From Phycisphaerales bacterium (GTDB taxonomy: Bacteria; Planctomycetota; Phycisphaerae; Phycisphaerales; SM1A02), in contig JAQWPT010000033.1 of assembly GCA_029245245.1 (NCBI GenBank), positions 62,001 to 126,000 of the forward strand: DNA of 64,000 bases, given 5' to 3'. How positions within the stretch are numbered: position 1 is the first letter of the stretch; each line of letters opens with the position of its first letter. The notes beneath the pieces were generated by a model. The model was not told where the DNA came from and searched no databases. It worked only from the letters and a program-made list of their open reading frames with translations. A program made the translations under genes and the position numbers. Below, in pieces: positions 39,996-46,234 of this stretch.

Positions 39996-42900
39996 TCACA
40001 TGTGCGAGGTGATGTCCTGCAGCCATTCACCCGGGGGGATGGCCCAGGGGCGGAACTTCTCCTGGATCCCAGAATCTTCGCTGTTGAAGATGGCCCGCTG
40101 GAGTCCGAGCATGGAGGCGGCAGGGCTGTCAATGAGGTGCGAGGAATCATTGGCACCCATTTGGAACAGGACCCGCATCTCGAACTCTCGCTGGCTGTTG
40201 CGGTCGAGGGTCCGGCTGAGGTTGTTGAGGGTGTCGATCCAGGTGATCACGTGGATTCCGTGGGCGGGCCCGTCCTTGAGCAGTTCGGCGAAGATGGCGT
40301 CCGAGGTGGCCGGTGCATCGGGATCGGAGGCCGAGAAGCTGAAGTCGTCCTCGGGTCGGCGAAGGTCACGCAGCCGGTGCAGGCCGTGGGCCAGGATGAA
40401 GATGCGTGGCCCGTTCGCATTTCCGGCCGCGCGGCGGGTGGCGAGCACCTCTCCAAGTGCCTGCATGGTGTCCGAGCAGCTCTTGTGGTTTCCGGCGATG
40501 ACCTCGTGAGGCAGTCGCTCGCCCAGTTCCATGAGTCGTCCATGGAAGATCGAATCGGCAGGCAAGGCATCGAGCACGTGGAACTGGAGGCCGTTGGCCG
40601 GAGCCTGGCTCGACAGGGCGATCATGATCGCTTCCAGGATCGCGGTCACGGTCTCTTCGCGTTGTCCCACCAGGAGCAGGTTGCTCCCGCTGTGGAGTTG
40701 GAACTGGACGGTCGTGGGGTCCTTGATCGCAATGGCATCGCCAAGCCATGCGTCGAGCGTGGCGGGAGTCCTGGCGGGTGTTGCCGCGTCGATGGAATCC
40801 ATGAGCATCTGGCAGCGTTGCAGGTCGGCTGGAACATTGCCCTCGAAGACAAACGGAGTGACATCGGCCATGCCATTGTTCTTCTTCGCCAGGGCGCGGA
40901 CGGTCTCGAGGTTCTCGTCCCGGATCGAATCATCCAGCCAGCAGACCTGGAAGGGGTTGTTTCCTTCAACCTTGCCCCCGGCATCGTTGTAGATGGCTTC
41001 TCCTGGTCGTGCCAGCAGCCTGGCCGCGGCATTTTCCTCGCTGAGAATCAGGTAGGAGTCCGCCTCGGTGCATTGCAGTGCGATCCGCACTCCCATCTGG
41101 CCCAGGGTGCTGCGTGCCAGTGAGTACGCGCCATCGAGAGTCTGTGAGCCGAGCAGGGCGTGGATTCCGAATGCCCGCCCCTGACGCACGATCCGGTCCA
41201 GCAGCAGGGAGGCTTCCTGGGAGACCTTGTCGTCGTCCACGAACAGTTCCTGGAATTCATCCACGATCAGGAGGATGCGAGGCATGGGCTGGTCGTACTT
41301 CTCACGGCAGCCGCTGAGATCCTGCACACCAAGTTCACGGTACAGCTCGCCGCGGTCCTTCAGTTCCTGGTCGATGCGCTGCAGCACGCTGAGTCCGAAC
41401 TCGCGGTCGCTCTCGATGGCGATGACCTTCGCGTGGGGAAGTGCGCAGTCCGCGTAGGTCTTGAACTCGACACCCTTCTTGAAGTCGACGAGGTAGAACT
41501 GCACTTCATCGGGGCTGTACCAGAGAGCGAGGTTGGTGATCAGCACGTGCAGCAGCGTGGATTTTCCCGAACCTGTCTTGCCTGCCACCAGCGCGTGCTG
41601 GGAGGTGCCGCGTCCGAGGACGAGTTGCTGCTGTCTCGTGGCGCCGGACTGTCCGATCGATACGCGGAGTTCCTTGGCGGTCGAGGAGTTCCACTGCTTC
41701 TCTGCAGGCGGAGTGATGACCGAGAAGGGGACTTCCACGCGGTGGGCCTGTTCCGCGGCGTGTCCTGCGGCCTGTACGAGCCGGGTAAGCGTCTGTTCCT
41801 CGGGCGGCGACTCGAGTGAAAGCGTGACCGACTGCATGGCGGGGTCTGCGCTGCGGATCGCACCGTCCTTGTACTGCAGGAGCGTGCTTCCCTCGATGAG
41901 GTCATCGCGGTGCACGTCCCGTGGAAAGCTCTGTCGGGTATCGCTTGCCATGAGTGTGTAGACGCCGCAGCGGGCCCCGGTCTGGGCAATGCTGGTGAGT
42001 CGTTGCCCGGCGTTCTCGGTGAGATTGGCGGGAAGGTCGGCCATCACCAGGAAGTGATAGGGCTCGGCGATCTCGCCGGCGGCGGCGTTGTACTCGTCGA
42101 TGGTCTCATACTCGTTGCGGAGGTAGGTCTGGATCACGTTCTCCATGTGTTCCGTGAGATCCACGAGTTGCTGCTCGATATGGCGGGGCTCGGTCCAGAT
42201 CTTCTCGATCATCGGCAACTCGTCATGGTCGGCAAGGTGCATGAATCCGGCGAAGTTCTGGCCAAGACCGACGGGGTCGATCACGGTGAAGCGTGCCTTG
42301 CCCGGTGGGAGTGACATCAGCAGTCGGAGCATCGTGTTCTGAAGAGCCTGCACGGCCTCGTCCCGGCCCTGTTCGGCGAACTCGATGTACAGGGATCCGG
42401 CCCGTGGGAGGTCCAGCATCGCGGGCAGTTCGACGACCTGGTCCATCGGCCATGAGAACCGTTCACTGGAGGGAAGCCCCTCGGCCAGGGTGGCCGTGTC
42501 CATCCGGAACCGGCCGTAGGAGACGAACCCGCTGAACGGATGGGAAGGTGTCCAGTTCATCCACGATGGATCCGACCAGGGTACGCAGTGACTGGACTCA
42601 AGATCGGCGTTGATGTCCTGTACGGATGCGACGAAGTCAGCGACGTGGCGGTTCCACTCCTCAATCAGGTCCTCGAGGCTGCGATCACGTTGCTCGCGGG
42701 CGTCACGGGTTTCGCGTTCCCATCCCTGTTCGATCTCATTGCGGCGATCCTCGTCGCTCTGCTTGAGGCGTGCGTGCTCCGTGCGATCGTGTTCCTGTTC
42801 CTCGGCGACCTTCTCGCCATGGCGTGCCTCGATCTTCTCGAGCAGTTCGCTGTAGTTGCCGTCGAGTTTCTCGTGCCGACGATCCCGGCGTGGTGTGACC

Positions 42901-43901
42901 TGTTCGATCTTCGGTGCGAAGTTGTCACGTGCTTCGCGGATTTCCCTGTCTCGGCGCTGCCGTACGGATTCCTCCTGCACTTCGCACTGCTCGTTGGCGA
43001 CACGGCGGATGTCGAGGATCACCAGATCGATCATGGCGGCGCAGTCGTGGAATTCCCTGTCCACCTGAGCGAATCGATGGGCGCTGATGCGACGCACGAG
43101 GCTCAGGAGAATCATCGAGAGCACCAGGCCGCCGAGGCTGACCCAGATGCCGCCGATCATGTTGTCCACGATTTCACCGTCACTGCTCAGCGACAAGGCG
43201 GCTACGCCACAGGCCCAGCTCAGCAGGGTGCCCATGGTCACGATGATCGCAGGGACCGGGCCGATGAAGATTCGTGGGATGAGAAGTGCGTAGAGTCGCT
43301 TGAGCACCAAGTCCAGTTCATTGAGTTGTTCGCGGAGCGCTTCGAGGGCGACCTCCGGGTCCGCAGCGGTTGGCGAGATCTCTTGTTCATCCGAAGGAGC
43401 CAGTTCGTCCATTCGACAGCGACGGCGAAACTCCCTGGCACGGTGACGCTGTTCATCGAGACGGCGTTCTGCGAGTTCCAGTTCCTTCGTCGTCAGTTGC
43501 AGTCGCTTTTGTGGTTCACTGCCGGTTGCCTCGTACACGCTCTCCGCCAGCCACTCCTGTTCCTGGAGGCCTTTGCGGGCCTGGGAGCGCATGTGCATGG
43601 CTTCCTCTTCGATCTCTTCCTTTCGCTGATCAAACTGGTTGTGGGCATGGTCGACCCGCTCGGTCCGCTGGTTCTCGAGGGAGGCCATCGCACGTTCGTG
43701 CTGCTGGACGTGCTCTTCCAGGCGGGCTGCGGTCCGGTCATCGAGTTCGGCAAGGTGCATGGTCCGGCGGCTGTCGGATCCGCTGGTCTTCCTGGAGAAG
43801 TTCTCCATCACCTCGTGTTCGGTGGTCCTGGTCCGATCGAAGAGCGAGCGGAGATCACCAATGAGTTGGGCAAGCCTCTGGGGATATCGTGTGTCGTTCA
43901 T
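39996..43901 (-). CDS. EccC/FtsK-like membrane ATPase of a type VII secretion-like locus
   Basis: 1301 residues. The N-terminal 200 are coiled-coil and charged. Two membrane helices lie at about 207-240 and 250-270, and a second coiled coil at about 320-430. Three FtsK/SpoIIIE-like modules follow. Module 1 (about 480-690) lacks a Walker A lysine. Module 2 has an intact P-loop GKTGSGKST near 772 and Walker B ILLIVDEFQE near 870, plus LLGSQTL and RIALQCTEAD. Module 3 has a degenerate P-loop (LLLVGQREET near 1074) and no acidic pair in RIFILAHG. This layout is that of EccC/EssC secretion motors rather than DNA-translocating FtsK. It probably drives export of the W-x-D proteins encoded just upstream. 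A weak Shine-Dalgarno supports ATG at 43901; a GTG at 43943 is possible. Confidence 0.85.
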   Translation of the reverse strand: MNDTRYPQRLAQLIGDLRSLFDRTRTTEHEVMENFSRKTSGSDSRRTMHLAELDDRTAARLEEHVQQHERAMASLENQRTERVDHAHNQFDQRKEEIEEEAMHMRSQARKGLQEQEWLAESVYEATGSEPQKRLQLTTKELELAERRLDEQRHRAREFRRRCRMDELAPSDEQEISPTAADPEVALEALREQLNELDLVLKRLYALLIPRIFIGPVPAIIVTMGTLLSWACGVAALSLSSDGEIVDNMIGGIWVSLGGLVLSMILLSLVRRISAHRFAQVDREFHDCAAMIDLVILDIRRVANEQCEVQEESVRQRRDREIREARDNFAPKIEQVTPRRDRRHEKLDGNYSELLEKIEARHGEKVAEEQEHDRTEHARLKQSDEDRRNEIEQGWERETRDAREQRDRSLEDLIEEWNRHVADFVASVQDINADLESSHCVPWSDPSWMNWTPSHPFSGFVSYGRFRMDTATLAEGLPSSERFSWPMDQVVELPAMLDLPRAGSLYIEFAEQGRDEAVQALQNTMLRLLMSLPPGKARFTVIDPVGLGQNFAGFMHLADHDELPMIEKIWTEPRHIEQQLVDLTEHMENVIQTYLRNEYETIDEYNAAAGEIAEPYHFLVMADLPANLTENAGQRLTSIAQTGARCGVYTLMASDTRQSFPRDVHRDDLIEGSTLLQYKDGAIRSADPAMQSVTLSLESPPEEQTLTRLVQAAGHAAEQAHRVEVPFSVITPPAEKQWNSSTAKELRVSIGQSGATRQQQLVLGRGTSQHALVAGKTGSGKSTLLHVLITNLALWYSPDEVQFYLVDFKKGVEFKTYADCALPHAKVIAIESDREFGLSVLQRIDQELKDRGELYRELGVQDLSGCREKYDQPMPRILLIVDEFQELFVDDDKVSQEASLLLDRIVRQGRAFGIHALLGSQTLDGAYSLARSTLGQMGVRIALQCTEADSYLILSEENAAARLLARPGEAIYNDAGGKVEGNNPFQVCWLDDSIRDENLETVRALAKKNNGMADVTPFVFEGNVPADLQRCQMLMDSIDAATPARTPATLDAWLGDAIAIKDPTTVQFQLHSGSNLLLVGQREETVTAILEAIMIALSSQAPANGLQFHVLDALPADSIFHGRLMELGERLPHEVIAGNHKSCSDTMQALGEVLATRRAAGNANGPRIFILAHGLHRLRDLRRPEDDFSFSASDPDAPATSDAIFAELLKDGPAHGIHVITWIDTLNNLSRTLDRNSQREFEMRVLFQMGANDSSHLIDSPAASMLGLQRAIFNSEDSGIQEKFRPWAIPPGEWLQDITSHM

Positions 43902-43962
43902 GATGAGCGTGACCTGTAAAGAGCCGTTTCGCAGTATGGACACATTCTACGGCGAGGTCGAG

Positions 43963-44175
43963 TCATTCGCAGTCGCGTTGAACACGCGACAGAACCTCAT
44001 TCATGGCATCCATGGCCTCGCAGGCATTGATCACGGCACGTTCAAGTGGATTGAGGTATTCGGACTCAAGCCGCTGACTGACGGGATCGTTCCAGTGCTC
44101 ATGGCTGGTTTCCCAGCGGAGCAGGAGGTCACGCGTGCTTTTCTGGAGTTTCGTCCGTGTCGATGGAAGGCTCAT
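43963..44175 (-). CDS. Small helical W-x-D protein, possible WXG100-like partner
   Basis: 70 residues from the ATG at 44175, which follows AAGGAG by six bases. The protein is almost all helix with a central turn containing HWNDP (Trp28, Asp30). The residues after it, SQRLESEYL, parallel those after the TWKDQ turn of the 90-residue protein two genes upstream. I infer a helical hairpin related to ESAT-6/WXG100 proteins, in which W-x-D replaces W-x-G. It overlaps the coiled-coil gene by 47 bases and lies 61 bases before the EccC-like gene. No signal peptide is present. It could be a secreted substrate or a chaperone partner. Confidence 0.6.
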   Translation of the reverse strand: MSLPSTRTKLQKSTRDLLLRWETSHEHWNDPVSQRLESEYLNPLERAVINACEAMDAMNEVLSRVQRDCE

Positions 44176-44743
44176 CCGTGTCTCCTTGGGGATCGCTGGC
44201 AGGCGCTCGACGGCGCGAGGCGGTCGGGTCGGTGTCGTCCTGCGGTACGGGCAGTTTCGGTGGGGGCGTGGCTGTGTAGTCTTCAAGGTGCTTCACGAGT
44301 TTGGCCAGCCAGGTCGAGGCCCGGCTCATGTCTCCTTCGATCATCCGATCCAGCCGGTTCATATGTCCCTTGAACATCATGCTCTCGCGGTCCAGTTCCC
44401 GCGACCATCGCTGGATGAGACGAAGTTTCTCCTCGCACTGCTCCATCTCCAGTTTGGCCCGGGCGACCGCCCGTTGTTGGTCGACGAACATGGAGGGGTG
44501 GGCATCTGGACGGCTGATCTTGGCGCGTTCCAGGTCACTTCGGGTGTTGGCGAGTTTCTGTCGTGTCTTCTTGTGGCGCATCGACCAGTTGTGCTTCTGG
44601 GTCTCGTCGACCCACCGCTGGACACGCATCACATCACTGTTGGCCTCGCTGATCGCCGTGCGGGCCGTGTGCAGGTAGGTCGTGAGTTTGGCGCGGAAGT
44701 CAGCGATGGTTTCGATGGATCTGACGTTTGCCCGATCGGCCAT
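44129..44743 (-). CDS. Coiled-coil protein of the type VII-like locus
   Basis: 204 residues from the ATG at 44743, chosen for GGGAG eight bases upstream; an ATG at 44782 overlaps the preceding stop. Residues about 10-150 are long charged helices (RVQRWVDETQKH, AVARAKLEMEQCEEKLRLIQ) without a signal or membrane segment. The last 45 residues are an acidic, Pro/Asp-rich disordered tail. No family is recognised. Its place between two W-x-D proteins and before the ATPase suggests a larger secreted substrate or a structural adaptor, similar in position to LXG or EspA-type helical proteins. Confidence 0.6.
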   Translation of the reverse strand: MADRANVRSIETIADFRAKLTTYLHTARTAISEANSDVMRVQRWVDETQKHNWSMRHKKTRQKLANTRSDLERAKISRPDAHPSMFVDQQRAVARAKLEMEQCEEKLRLIQRWSRELDRESMMFKGHMNRLDRMIEGDMSRASTWLAKLVKHLEDYTATPPPKLPVPQDDTDPTASRRRAPASDPQGDTDEPSIDTDETPEKHA

Positions 44744-44778
44744 GGCTTGAACTCCCGCCGTGTCGGCGATGAACATGT

Positions 44779-45051
44779 TCAACGCTGCTGCAGGTAATCC
44801 TCGGCTCGCTGCGCCTTGCGAAGCAGGAAGGGGATGTGTTCCTTGGTCGAGACCTGGAACCGGGCAAGAACCCGCATCGCCTGCTCGAATTCGTCCATGA
44901 ACTTCTTGTGCTCCTGGTCCTTCCAGGTCTGCCCCAGCGAGTGGCTGCGGGTGTTGATGACGTTCATCTGCGTATGGAGTTCTTCCGTGAACCTCTTGAG
45001 GTCGTTGGCGAACTTCCGGAGTTCAGCTGGATCAATGATGGCTTTGGCCAT
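44779..45051 (-). CDS. WXG100-like protein (ESAT-6 superfamily)
   Basis: 90 residues from the ATG at 45051, with GGGAG eight bases upstream. Length and design match ESAT-6/WXG100 proteins: helix 1 (about 8-36), a turn with Trp43-Lys-Asp45 in LGQTWKDQEHKKF, and helix 2 (about 47-85) with the FMDEFEQAM amphipathic pattern. There is no signal peptide. The family forms helical-hairpin dimers exported by EccC-type ATPases; one is encoded three genes downstream. W-x-D instead of W-x-G is a variant turn. A YxxxD/E secretion tail is not obvious. The gene begins the putative operon; the 41 bases upstream contain a possible TATCAT box. Confidence 0.75.
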   Translation of the reverse strand: MAKAIIDPAELRKFANDLKRFTEELHTQMNVINTRSHSLGQTWKDQEHKKFMDEFEQAMRVLARFQVSTKEHIPFLLRKAQRAEDYLQQR

Positions 45052-45092: not shown

Positions 45093-45689
45093 TCACCCTC
45101 CGGCCGGGGAGCCCTCTTGATCACCATTGGCGGGCAATTCTCCGGGTGCCGATGCCGGCGGGCTTGGTTGAGGGCGGAAGAGCCGTCTGTATTCCCCTCG
45201 GATTTCACCGACGACCTCGCCTCGAATGGTGACGTATTTCGCCGCTGCGATTTCCAGATCGCCCATGATCACGGCTCCGGGAAGCACGGTCAGTTCCTTG
45301 CCGAGGAAGGCCACGTTTCCGGTGAAGGTGCCATCGATGACCGCGTCGCCGGAGGAGATGGCGATGTCGGCGTTCGCACCGTCGAGCACCTGGACGGAAT
45401 CCACGGCTCGAAAGAAGGTTGGCTCGCTGACGGGCTGGTCATTGATCAGGGCCAGGCCATTTTCCTGTACGAGCGTGTATCCGGCCTCGAGGGCCTTGTT
45501 TTCGAAACGGCGTACCGCGGACCAGGCGCTGAACATGGGCCACACCTGCAGCAGCACGATGATGCCGACGATGCAGATCATCACCCCGCACCCGGAGCGG
45601 GAGGCGGAGGGGCCACGCTGCCTGGCGGGAGGATCGGTCGGCATCTCTGTGGGGGAGGGCGGGGGTGTGGTCTCGGGTGATGACGTCAT
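45093..45689 (-). CDS. Single-pass membrane protein with bactofilin-like repeats
   Basis: 198 residues. A Pro/Ser/Thr-rich N-terminus (about 1-30) precedes one membrane helix (GVMICIVGIIVLLQVWPMF, about 35-53). The rest is short beta-strand repeats ending in hydrophobic/Gly turns, such as AVIDGTFTGNVAFLGKEL, VLPGAVIMGDLEIAAAKY and VTIRGEVVGEI, resembling the beta-helical core of bactofilins (polymer-forming proteins). The Pro-rich C-terminus is disordered. Translation starts within the stop of the FixH-like gene (ATGA), so it is coupled to the respiratory operon, while the type VII-like genes lie 41 bases downstream. Its function is unknown. Confidence 0.6.
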   Translation of the reverse strand: MTSSPETTPPPSPTEMPTDPPARQRGPSASRSGCGVMICIVGIIVLLQVWPMFSAWSAVRRFENKALEAGYTLVQENGLALINDQPVSEPTFFRAVDSVQVLDGANADIAISSGDAVIDGTFTGNVAFLGKELTVLPGAVIMGDLEIAAAKYVTIRGEVVGEIRGEYRRLFRPQPSPPASAPGELPANGDQEGSPAGG

Positions 45690-46234
45690 GCCATGTTCTC
45701 GGTGGGGCTGGATGTTGTTCGACGTCGACTGCGGACGAGCCACTGGTTGCACAGGAACAGGGCGATTGCGATCACGGGAATCACCAGCCATGTCCAGAGA
45801 CTCAGCAGGGGCGGAATCGCATCGGAAGCGACCAGAGTGGTCGTGATCCGGCCCCCATCATCTCCGAGTTGGACCGCGACGTCGACCTGCCACCGACCTG
45901 GGGCGGGAAGGTCCAGCAGGGCGGCATAGAGGAGCTTGTTCGTGGCATCCGCCCGGGTCGCTTCCACCAGGATCGAGTCGGCCTGCCCATCCAGAGGCTG
46001 CAGCATCAGGTTCACCGTGGCGGCGAGGACCGAGTCATCCGTGTGGGGTTCCTGCACGAGGATCGACAGGTCGATCGGCCCCGCTCGCAGCGGTGTGGGC
46101 GAGGAAAAGAGTGTAATGCGCCAGGGGCCGGCATTCTCGGAGACGCGGACGATGCCGCCATCACCCTTCGCCGGGGTGGAGCACACCAGGAGGCAGAGCA
46201 GCAGCAGTCGGAGATGAACGGGGGAGGCGGGCAT
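45686..46234 (-). CDS. FixH-like protein
   Basis: 182 residues from the ATG at 46234, one base after the previous stop. There is a signal peptide (LRLLLLCLLVCSTPAKG), a beta-sandwich-like region of about 110 residues (WRITLFSSPTPLRAGPIDLSI, LPAPGRWQVDVAVQ), and a C-terminal membrane helix (LVIPVIAIALFLCNQWLV) ending in a basic tail. The middle resembles FixH/YtkA-type domains. FixH (CcoH) assists assembly of cbb3 oxidases and usually follows the ferredoxin protein FixG/CcoG. Here it follows a gene whose second half is CcoG-like, which supports the call. Confidence 0.6.
   Translation of the reverse strand: MPASPVHLRLLLLCLLVCSTPAKGDGGIVRVSENAGPWRITLFSSPTPLRAGPIDLSILVQEPHTDDSVLAATVNLMLQPLDGQADSILVEATRADATNKLLYAALLDLPAPGRWQVDVAVQLGDDGGRITTTLVASDAIPPLLSLWTWLVIPVIAIALFLCNQWLVRSRRRTTSSPTENMA

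What the first reader, a model, noticed from the sequence alone, without database searches (positions are those of the whole stretch)
39996..45051. Minimal type VII secretion-like locus in a planctomycete
Four adjacent minus-strand genes encode a WXG100-like protein, a coiled-coil protein, a second small W-x-D protein and a 1301-residue membrane ATPase with EccC/EssC layout. None of EccB, EccD, EccE, mycosin, YukD/EsaB or EsaA is present nearby. This may be a stand-alone helical-hairpin export system for a Gram-negative-type envelope.
Basis: partly seen in the sequence, partly recalled or inferred. Interest (0 to 1): 0.78.

Follow-up and report, generated by a model that had tools for sequence, protein, structure and literature searches.

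The report
Minimal type VII-like export operon
A planctomycete carries a compact four-gene set, a membrane motor plus three small helical partners, that resembles the core of the Gram-positive type VII protein-export machine; relatives in Gram-negative bacteria were noted before, but the planctomycete form looks membrane-anchored and is kept together as a set.

Summary
The 1301-aa ATPase is EccC/EssC-like: three tandem FtsK-type domains, Walker motifs only in the middle one, plus membrane helices. The 90-aa protein is WXG100 (Pfam above cut-off; nearest solved relative Helicobacter HP0062). The 70-aa protein is modelled as a WXG100-like hairpin, WxD at the turn. The third looks like coiled coil. 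Of 392 Planctomycetota genomes 58 have all four, 5 some, 329 none; in some they are scattered over the chromosome yet all kept. The ATPase tree largely follows family labels. The set also occurs in MAGs titled Verrucomicrobiota and Lentisphaerae. The kind is in print: Zhang 2012 names planctomycetes among lineages with solo WXG proteins and an ATPase active only in its middle domain; the 2024 CoCoNuT paper describes a defence-linked relative with two WXG100 proteins and a coiled coil. Not found in print: the membrane-anchored four-gene form, its co-retention, and a coiled-coil partner that aligns with part of a Rhodococcus plasmid protein and sometimes carries an Imm33-like domain. Export is inferred; cargo and outer-membrane passage are unknown.

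The parts
44779..45051 (-). WXG100-family protein (90 aa), W43-K-D45 at the predicted turn
   Evidence: Pfam PF06013 29.8 bits, cut-off 27.3; HP0062 structure 3fx7 E 4.3e-7 by phmmer; all 30 members of A1, window included, match PF06013 at E<=0.01; not folded here
44129..44743 (-). coiled-coil-looking partner protein (204 aa from the conserved ATG; a TTG at 44782 would give 217 aa)
   Evidence: no Pfam family at E<=0.01 for the window protein; family found in 60 of 392 genomes; family aligns with residues 1-148 of a Rhodococcus plasmid protein, prob 78, E 1.8e-5; coiled coil judged by eye from the sequence
43963..44175 (-). second, shorter WXG100-like hairpin protein (70 aa) with W28-N-D30 at the turn
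   Evidence: AlphaFold2 pLDDT 95.7, helices 3-27 and 31-69; VIA-align best match HP0062, Z 8.7, 1.2 A over 68 residues; Foldseek has none at E<=0.001; 7 of 30 members of A2 match PF06013 at E<=0.01, the window protein itself does not
39996..43901 (-). EccC/EssC-like membrane ATPase (1301 aa), three tandem FtsK-type domains
43095..43295 (-). membrane region of the ATPase: hydrophobic segments at residues 203-221 and 251-269
   Evidence: Kyte-Doolittle scan; at least one such segment in 39 of 39 full-length relatives and 65 of 68 of a second, overlapping set; two segments in 35 of the 39 (listing)
41559..41582 (-). Walker A GKTGSGKS of the middle domain (residues 774-781)
   Evidence: G[KR]TGSGKS in all 41 aligned ATPases
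41256..41273 (-). Walker B LLIVDE of the middle domain (residues 877-882)
   Evidence: DEFQ block in all 41 aligned ATPases

Best explanation
It is a compact type VII-like protein-export module of the 'solo WXG / middle-domain-active EssC' kind, in a membrane-anchored form resident in planctomycetes and their relatives. Proposed working: the ATPase forms a hexamer (inferred from its family) held in the inner membrane by two helices and a long coiled-coil stalk (topology inferred from sequence). The middle domain burns ATP; the outer two, without a P-loop, serve as docking and gating surfaces, as recalled for EccC. The WXG100 protein and the short W-x-D hairpin pair as a four-helix bundle, by analogy with EsxA/EsxB, and dock on the motor. 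The coiled-coil protein is the exported partner or cargo adaptor; it sits where a Helicobacter plasmid relative encodes a protein ending in a nuclease domain. Export into the periplasm is inferred. How cargo would cross the outer membrane, and what other cargo there is, is unknown.
For: Top Foldseek match to T7SS EccC (4nh0, E 3.2e-31); 713 residues aligned with it, Z 26.7, rmsd 13.4 A, so the domains match but not their relative placement. Intact P-loop only in the middle domain. Two WXG100-type proteins. All four in 58 of the 63 genomes that have any; 329 of 392 have none. Genes together in 39 of the 58, and all four retained when scattered, e.g. at four places of single-contig genome G105. 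Membrane segment in 39/39 and 65/68 ATPases, or a separate membrane-protein gene beside the ATPase in one planctomycete (two helices) and in a Deinococcus plasmid (one helix). Plasmid relatives in Caballeronia and Helicobacter with the order WXG100 - longer protein - further small genes - ATPase; the Helicobacter one has a WHH nuclease domain and an SMI1/KNR4 neighbour, the Caballeronia one no Pfam hit. Imm33-like domain at the end of the coiled-coil protein in 9 of 86 relatives, five of them seeds of my own profile; over Pfam's cut-off in 3 of 3 scanned.
Against: No secretion, interaction or expression data. The classical export signal YxxxD/E is absent from the WXG100 tails (0 of 30). Other T7SS membrane subunits were not seen. 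The coiled-coil protein is one copy per genome and mostly has no extra domain, so no varied cargo was found. Plasmid relatives sit beside defence/stress genes and show no comparable membrane segments in the ATPase, so a role without export is possible. Coiled-coil similarity to plasmid proteins is supported only for Rhodococcus, not for Caballeronia, Deinococcus or Helicobacter. The two hairpin families align only weakly with each other (prob 40) and their pairing is untested. Eight of 58 loci lack part of the set beside the ATPase and their genomes were not searched further.
Confidence: 0.6

Rival explanations
1. A membrane-tethered stress or phage-defence switch: the ATPase remodels or releases the coiled-coil/WXG complex inside the cell and nothing is exported.
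For: Plasmid relatives lie beside VWA, kinase/phosphatase and CARF genes or TerD genes. CoCoNuT authors treat the relatives as defence add-ons (PMC11090510, passages). The motor domain matches PADLOC models SspH (E 2.9e-24), mad8 (1.6e-21) and HerA.
Against: The PADLOC matches cover the FtsK/HerA-type motor region only, plus one weak CARF_PDDEXK hit of the coiled coil (E 0.0025). No defence or Ter genes among the six neighbouring ORFs scanned. The sampled ATPase tree largely follows family labels. A membrane segment is kept in nearly all ATPases examined.
Confidence: 0.2
2. A housekeeping envelope factor: the complex helps build or divide the unusual planctomycete envelope and the hairpins are structural subunits.
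For: Mostly one copy of each small gene per genome, family-following tree, no varied cargo found.
Against: 329 of 392 genomes have none of the four, and relatives are on plasmids, one with a nuclease domain.
Confidence: 0.12
3. A DNA translocase or conjugation ATPase of the FtsK/TcpA type.
For: The middle motor domain aligns best with FtsK (Z 31.1 over 276 residues) and well with TcpA (Z 27.8).
Against: No FtsK_gamma among the Pfam hits; top Foldseek match is EccC; a second FtsK-like frame of 834 aa is on another contig of the genome; partners are WXG100-type proteins.
Confidence: 0.04

Closest known systems
Solo-WXG systems with a YueA-like ATPase, only the middle of three HerA/FtsK domains active (Zhang 2012, PMC3482391, Table 1 note 6, passage)
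   Same: Exactly this domain state; planctomycetes and verrucomicrobia are named there
   Different: Authors say they appear mobile; the sampled planctomycete ATPases largely follow family labels. In the passages shown (12 of 38 places) no second hairpin, coiled-coil partner or membrane helices are mentioned
[quoted passage not shown] it cites Anantharaman 2012, not seen)
   Same: Middle-domain-active ATPase with coiled coil, two WXG100 proteins (one without WxG), coiled-coil protein
   Different: Those ATPases are said to lack membrane helices and the coiled coil is fused to a restriction-nuclease-like domain; here membrane segments are present and the coiled coil usually stands alone
Helicobacter WXG100 secretion system, HP0062/HP0066 (PMC4978471, PMC3397514, passages)
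   Same: HP0062 is the nearest solved structure of both small proteins; FtsK/SpoIIIE gene in the cluster
   Different: Cluster listed with an HNH/EndoVII nuclease; the chromosomal Helicobacter locus was not examined here, only a plasmid one (L124)
T7SSa/T7SSb (EccC/EssC with EsxA/EsxB)
   Same: Three-domain ATPase fold and WXG100 partner
   Different: No YukD or EsaA found; only the middle P-loop intact; no YxxxD/E signal; no demonstrated secretion

Membership tests
Solo-WXG / middle-active EssC-like system | WXG100 protein present | tested here: met
   Pfam PF06013 over cut-off
Solo-WXG / middle-active EssC-like system | ATPase with three FtsK/HerA domains, only the middle active | tested here: met
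   Walker A and B in the middle domain of all 41 aligned ATPases; no P-loop at the matching place of the third domain, and none seen in the first domain's consensus, read by eye; three domains by fold
Solo-WXG / middle-active EssC-like system | mobility (a remark of the authors, not a definition) | tested here: inconclusive
   Quick tree of 41 planctomycete ATPases plus 4 plasmid ones: all 14 groups together need 14 label changes, minimum 13, shuffled mean 31.1, though f1 alone needs 3 and many forks are weak; relatives do occur on plasmids
CoCoNuT EssC-like extension | second WXG100-fold protein and coiled-coil protein in the operon | tested here: met
   coiled coil by eye
CoCoNuT EssC-like extension | ATPase without membrane helices | tested here: not met
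   at least one membrane segment in 39 of 39 and 65 of 68 full-length ATPases
CoCoNuT EssC-like extension | embedded in a CoCoNuT/TerY-P operon | tested here: not met
   the six neighbouring ORFs scanned are unrelated
T7SSa/T7SSb | EccC/EssC-type ATPase | tested here: met
   EccC is the top Foldseek match; NCBI equivalog cut-offs are not reached
T7SSa/T7SSb | YukD/EsaB or EsaA subunit | tested here: not met
   no match genome-wide, controls rang; assembly 96% complete
T7SSa/T7SSb | EccB, EccD, EccE | tested here: inconclusive
   no match, but controls did not ring
T7SSa/T7SSb | mycosin protease | not tested
   not searched
T7SSa/T7SSb | YxxxD/E export signal | tested here: not met
   0 of 30 WXG100 tails
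T7SSa/T7SSb | ATPase-dependent secretion of the WXG100 protein | not testable with these tools
   needs a secretome experiment
FtsK DNA translocase | gamma (winged-helix) DNA-recognition domain | tested here: not met
   no gamma family among 13 Pfam hits at E<=1

The most novel reading that the evidence does not exclude
A distinct class of type VII-like secretion native to the diderm PVC bacteria, in which the motor itself is the only membrane subunit and exports a WXG/WxD/coiled-coil complex. It would be the ancestral, resident form from which plasmid and defence-linked versions took the motor, lost the membrane anchor and gained nucleases.
Probability: 0.3. Interest if true: 0.8.

Novelty: new variant of a known kind. 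Interest (0 to 1): 0.5.

Why it matters
[quoted passage not shown] A co-retained four-gene set in planctomycetes is a clean place to test that, and to ask what the smallest working type VII motor is and whether it can serve a cell with an outer membrane.

Tried and rejected
Rejected: DNA translocase reading (no gamma family; EccC layout). Varied toxin carrier: the coiled-coil family was searched in 392 genomes and found once per positive genome; the only recurrent extra domain seen is Imm33-like (9 of 86). A fifth conserved partner: clustering ORFs of 61 neighbourhoods gave no other family in more than 7, once frames lying inside the four genes were set aside by their coordinates (the middle of that output, program warnings, was cut). 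Phage origin: the best of 202 phage records covers 75% of the query at 28% identity, in a 10-kb unannotated record; not followed. Promoter and terminator scans gave nothing above shuffles. The HxxxD/ExxhxxxH tail pattern of Poulsen 2014 was scanned with a loose definition (21 of 30) and is not used as evidence. The YukC match is below cut-off and was not followed. Coiled-coil comparisons with Caballeronia, Deinococcus and Helicobacter proteins were not significant. No coiled-coil or topology predictor was run; membrane segments come from a simple hydropathy scan.

Rows left out and limits: A2 omits L054 (wrong start); A3 omits L033, L036, L041 (long C-terminus); A4's first row is the 816-aa C-terminal part of the window ATPase. 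Neighbourhoods were fetched for 39 of the 61 other ATPase-bearing genomes (40 stretches, G076 twice), plus 20 more stretches. The named and unnamed sets overlap (for instance contig lengths 14951 and 26567 occur in both), so 86, 39 and 68 are not all independent. Fisher p-values are not corrected for shared ancestry. Of the 11 genomes with the trio apart from the ATPase, several have the ATPase at a contig edge; those with both on one contig (G152, G307, G251) show true separation. The tree is a quick one without bootstraps.

Paper searches: in an open-licence library only. Papers were seen as passages only. Sutcliffe 2011 and Anantharaman 2012 were not seen.

Full report
What is there. On the minus strand, in order of transcription: a 90-aa WXG100 protein (44779-45051), a coiled-coil-looking protein (44129-44743, or from a TTG at 44782), a 70-aa W-x-D protein (43963-44175) whose start overlaps the end of the coiled-coil gene, and a 1301-aa ATPase (39996-43901). 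Neighbours are a weakly bactofilin-like protein, an unassigned protein, CtaG-type and cytochrome b proteins on one side, tRNA-Val and DUF1553/DUF1501 proteins on the other. The genome is a 2.69-Mb, 38-contig assembly, 96% complete, with a single Pfam WXG100 match.

The ATPase. FtsK_SpoIIIE at 108.9 bits; nearest NCBI families EccCa, EssC and EccCb at 99.6-117 bits, all below equivalog cut-offs. In 41 aligned relatives the middle domain keeps Walker A and the DEFQ Walker B block; the third domain has no P-loop at the matching place and none is seen in the first domain's consensus (read by eye). The 816-aa C-terminal model (pLDDT 88.3) matches EccC best by Foldseek (E 3.2e-31, TM 0.42, rmsd 13.7 A). 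By VIA-align the single motor matches FtsK best (Z 31.1 over 276 residues), while EccC matches across 713 residues (Z 26.7, rmsd 13.4 A) and EccC/EssC D2-D3 across 468-500. Upstream lie charged, coiled-coil-like stretches and hydrophobic helices. At least one membrane segment is present in 39 of 39 full-length relatives (two in 35 of them) and in 65 of 68 of a second, overlapping set; L165, L217 and L236 have none. The same scan finds none in the Caballeronia and Deinococcus plasmid ATPases, and one marginal segment each in the Helicobacter one (residues 120-138, in the first-domain region by position) and the Rhodococcus one (17-35, inside its TerD domain). In one planctomycete (L121) a two-helix protein is encoded between WXG100 and ATPase, and in the Deinococcus plasmid a one-helix protein precedes the ATPase.

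The small proteins. The WXG100 protein's best solved relative is Helicobacter HP0062 (E 4.3e-7); all 30 members of its alignment match PF06013 at E<=0.01, and W43, D45, Q46 and E47 are invariant. The 70-aa protein has no Pfam hit of its own, but 7 of 30 members of its family match WXG100. The two families align only weakly profile to profile (prob 40, E 3e-4). Its model is a clean hairpin (pLDDT 95.7). Foldseek gives no match at E<=0.001 (best E 1.1, an EsxA:EsxB dimer); VIA-align puts HP0062 first (Z 8.7, 1.2 A over 68 residues), then mostly EsxB/EsxEF-type WXG100 proteins with a designed bundle among them. Z near 8 is modest for helical hairpins; the shared WxD at the turn adds weight.

Conservation. 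Of 41 ATPase neighbourhoods, 30 have all three small genes upstream. In 392 Planctomycetota genomes, ATPase orthologues (over 100 bits) are in 62, WXG100 in 60, coiled coil in 60, small hairpin in 61; 58 have all four, 5 have some (G107, G219, G296, G336, G377; three of them 61-80% complete), 329 have none. In 39 of the 58 the four lie together (links under 8 kb); in 11 the trio is apart from the ATPase (several at contig edges); in 8 they are more scattered, including four separate places in single-contig genome G105. Retention without linkage argues against hitch-hiking. A quick tree of 41 ATPases with four plasmid ones needs 14 family-label changes (minimum 13, shuffled mean 31.1), although f1 alone needs 3 and many forks are weak; inheritance within the phylum looks mainly vertical with loss. 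Among the best 80 relatives in named genomes, 50 of 58 with over 1.5 kb upstream have the full set, including records titled Verrucomicrobiales and Lentisphaerae; 8 lack some or all of it there.

Clues to function. Plasmid relatives in Caballeronia and Helicobacter have the order WXG100 - longer protein - further small genes - ATPase. The Helicobacter protein at that place ends in a WHH nuclease domain and is followed by an SMI1/KNR4 protein; the Caballeronia one has no Pfam hit. In Rhodococcus similar genes follow the ATPase, and the first 148 residues of the longer protein align with the planctomycete coiled-coil family (prob 78, E 1.8e-5); its C-terminal part has no Pfam hit, so a toxin there is a guess. 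In nine relatives, most titled Phycisphaerales where named, the coiled-coil protein ends in an Imm33-like domain (9 of 86, five being seeds of the profile; over Pfam's cut-off in 3 of 3 scanned). This suggests an effector or adaptor slot for the coiled-coil protein. But it is single-copy and mostly without an extra domain, so the cargo remains unidentified.

Known and new. Zhang 2012 (PMC3482391, Table 1 note 6) already records solo WXG proteins with a YueA-like ATPase whose middle domain alone is active, naming planctomycetes and verrucomicrobia, and says they appear to be mobile versions of T7SS. [quoted passage not shown] The CoCoNuT paper (PMC11090510) describes two WXG100 proteins, a coiled-coil nuclease and an EssC-like ATPase without membrane helices. 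So the kind is known. What I did not find in print (open-licence library, passages only) is the four-gene planctomycete set with its membrane segments, its retention even when scattered, and its family-following tree.

Verdict. Shown: genes, sequence and predicted-fold matches, motifs, co-occurrence. Inferred: vertical inheritance, hexamer, docking of the hairpin pair, export to the periplasm. Unknown: cargo, outer-membrane step, physiological role. I rate export at about 0.6 and the find as a new variant of a known kind, interest 0.5.

Noticed in passing
L121 6271-6699 and 6605-9631: In one planctomycete (G107) the ATPase frame shows no membrane segment, and a separate gene for a two-helix protein sits between WXG100 and ATPase; the coiled-coil and small-hairpin profiles found nothing in that genome.
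   Followed up: partly
L159, L171, L179, L205, L220, L223, L033, L036, L041: The coiled-coil protein carries a C-terminal Imm33-like (immunity-type) domain in these 9 of 86 relatives.
   Followed up: partly
L125 8558-12526: Rhodococcus plasmid ATPase of this kind has an N-terminal TerD domain, with further TerD genes nearby.
   Followed up: no
L124 7027-8438: Feline Helicobacter plasmid: WHH nuclease and SMI1/KNR4 gene between WXG100 and ATPase.
   Followed up: partly
L053 and L066 (genome G076): Two ATPase copies of this family in one genome, with one WXG100 match.
   Followed up: no
window 45093-45791: Bactofilin-like protein (below Pfam cut-off) directly upstream of the operon.
   Followed up: no
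L174: A genome record titled Alphaproteobacteria carries a planctomycete-like operon; possibly a mislabelled MAG.
   Followed up: no
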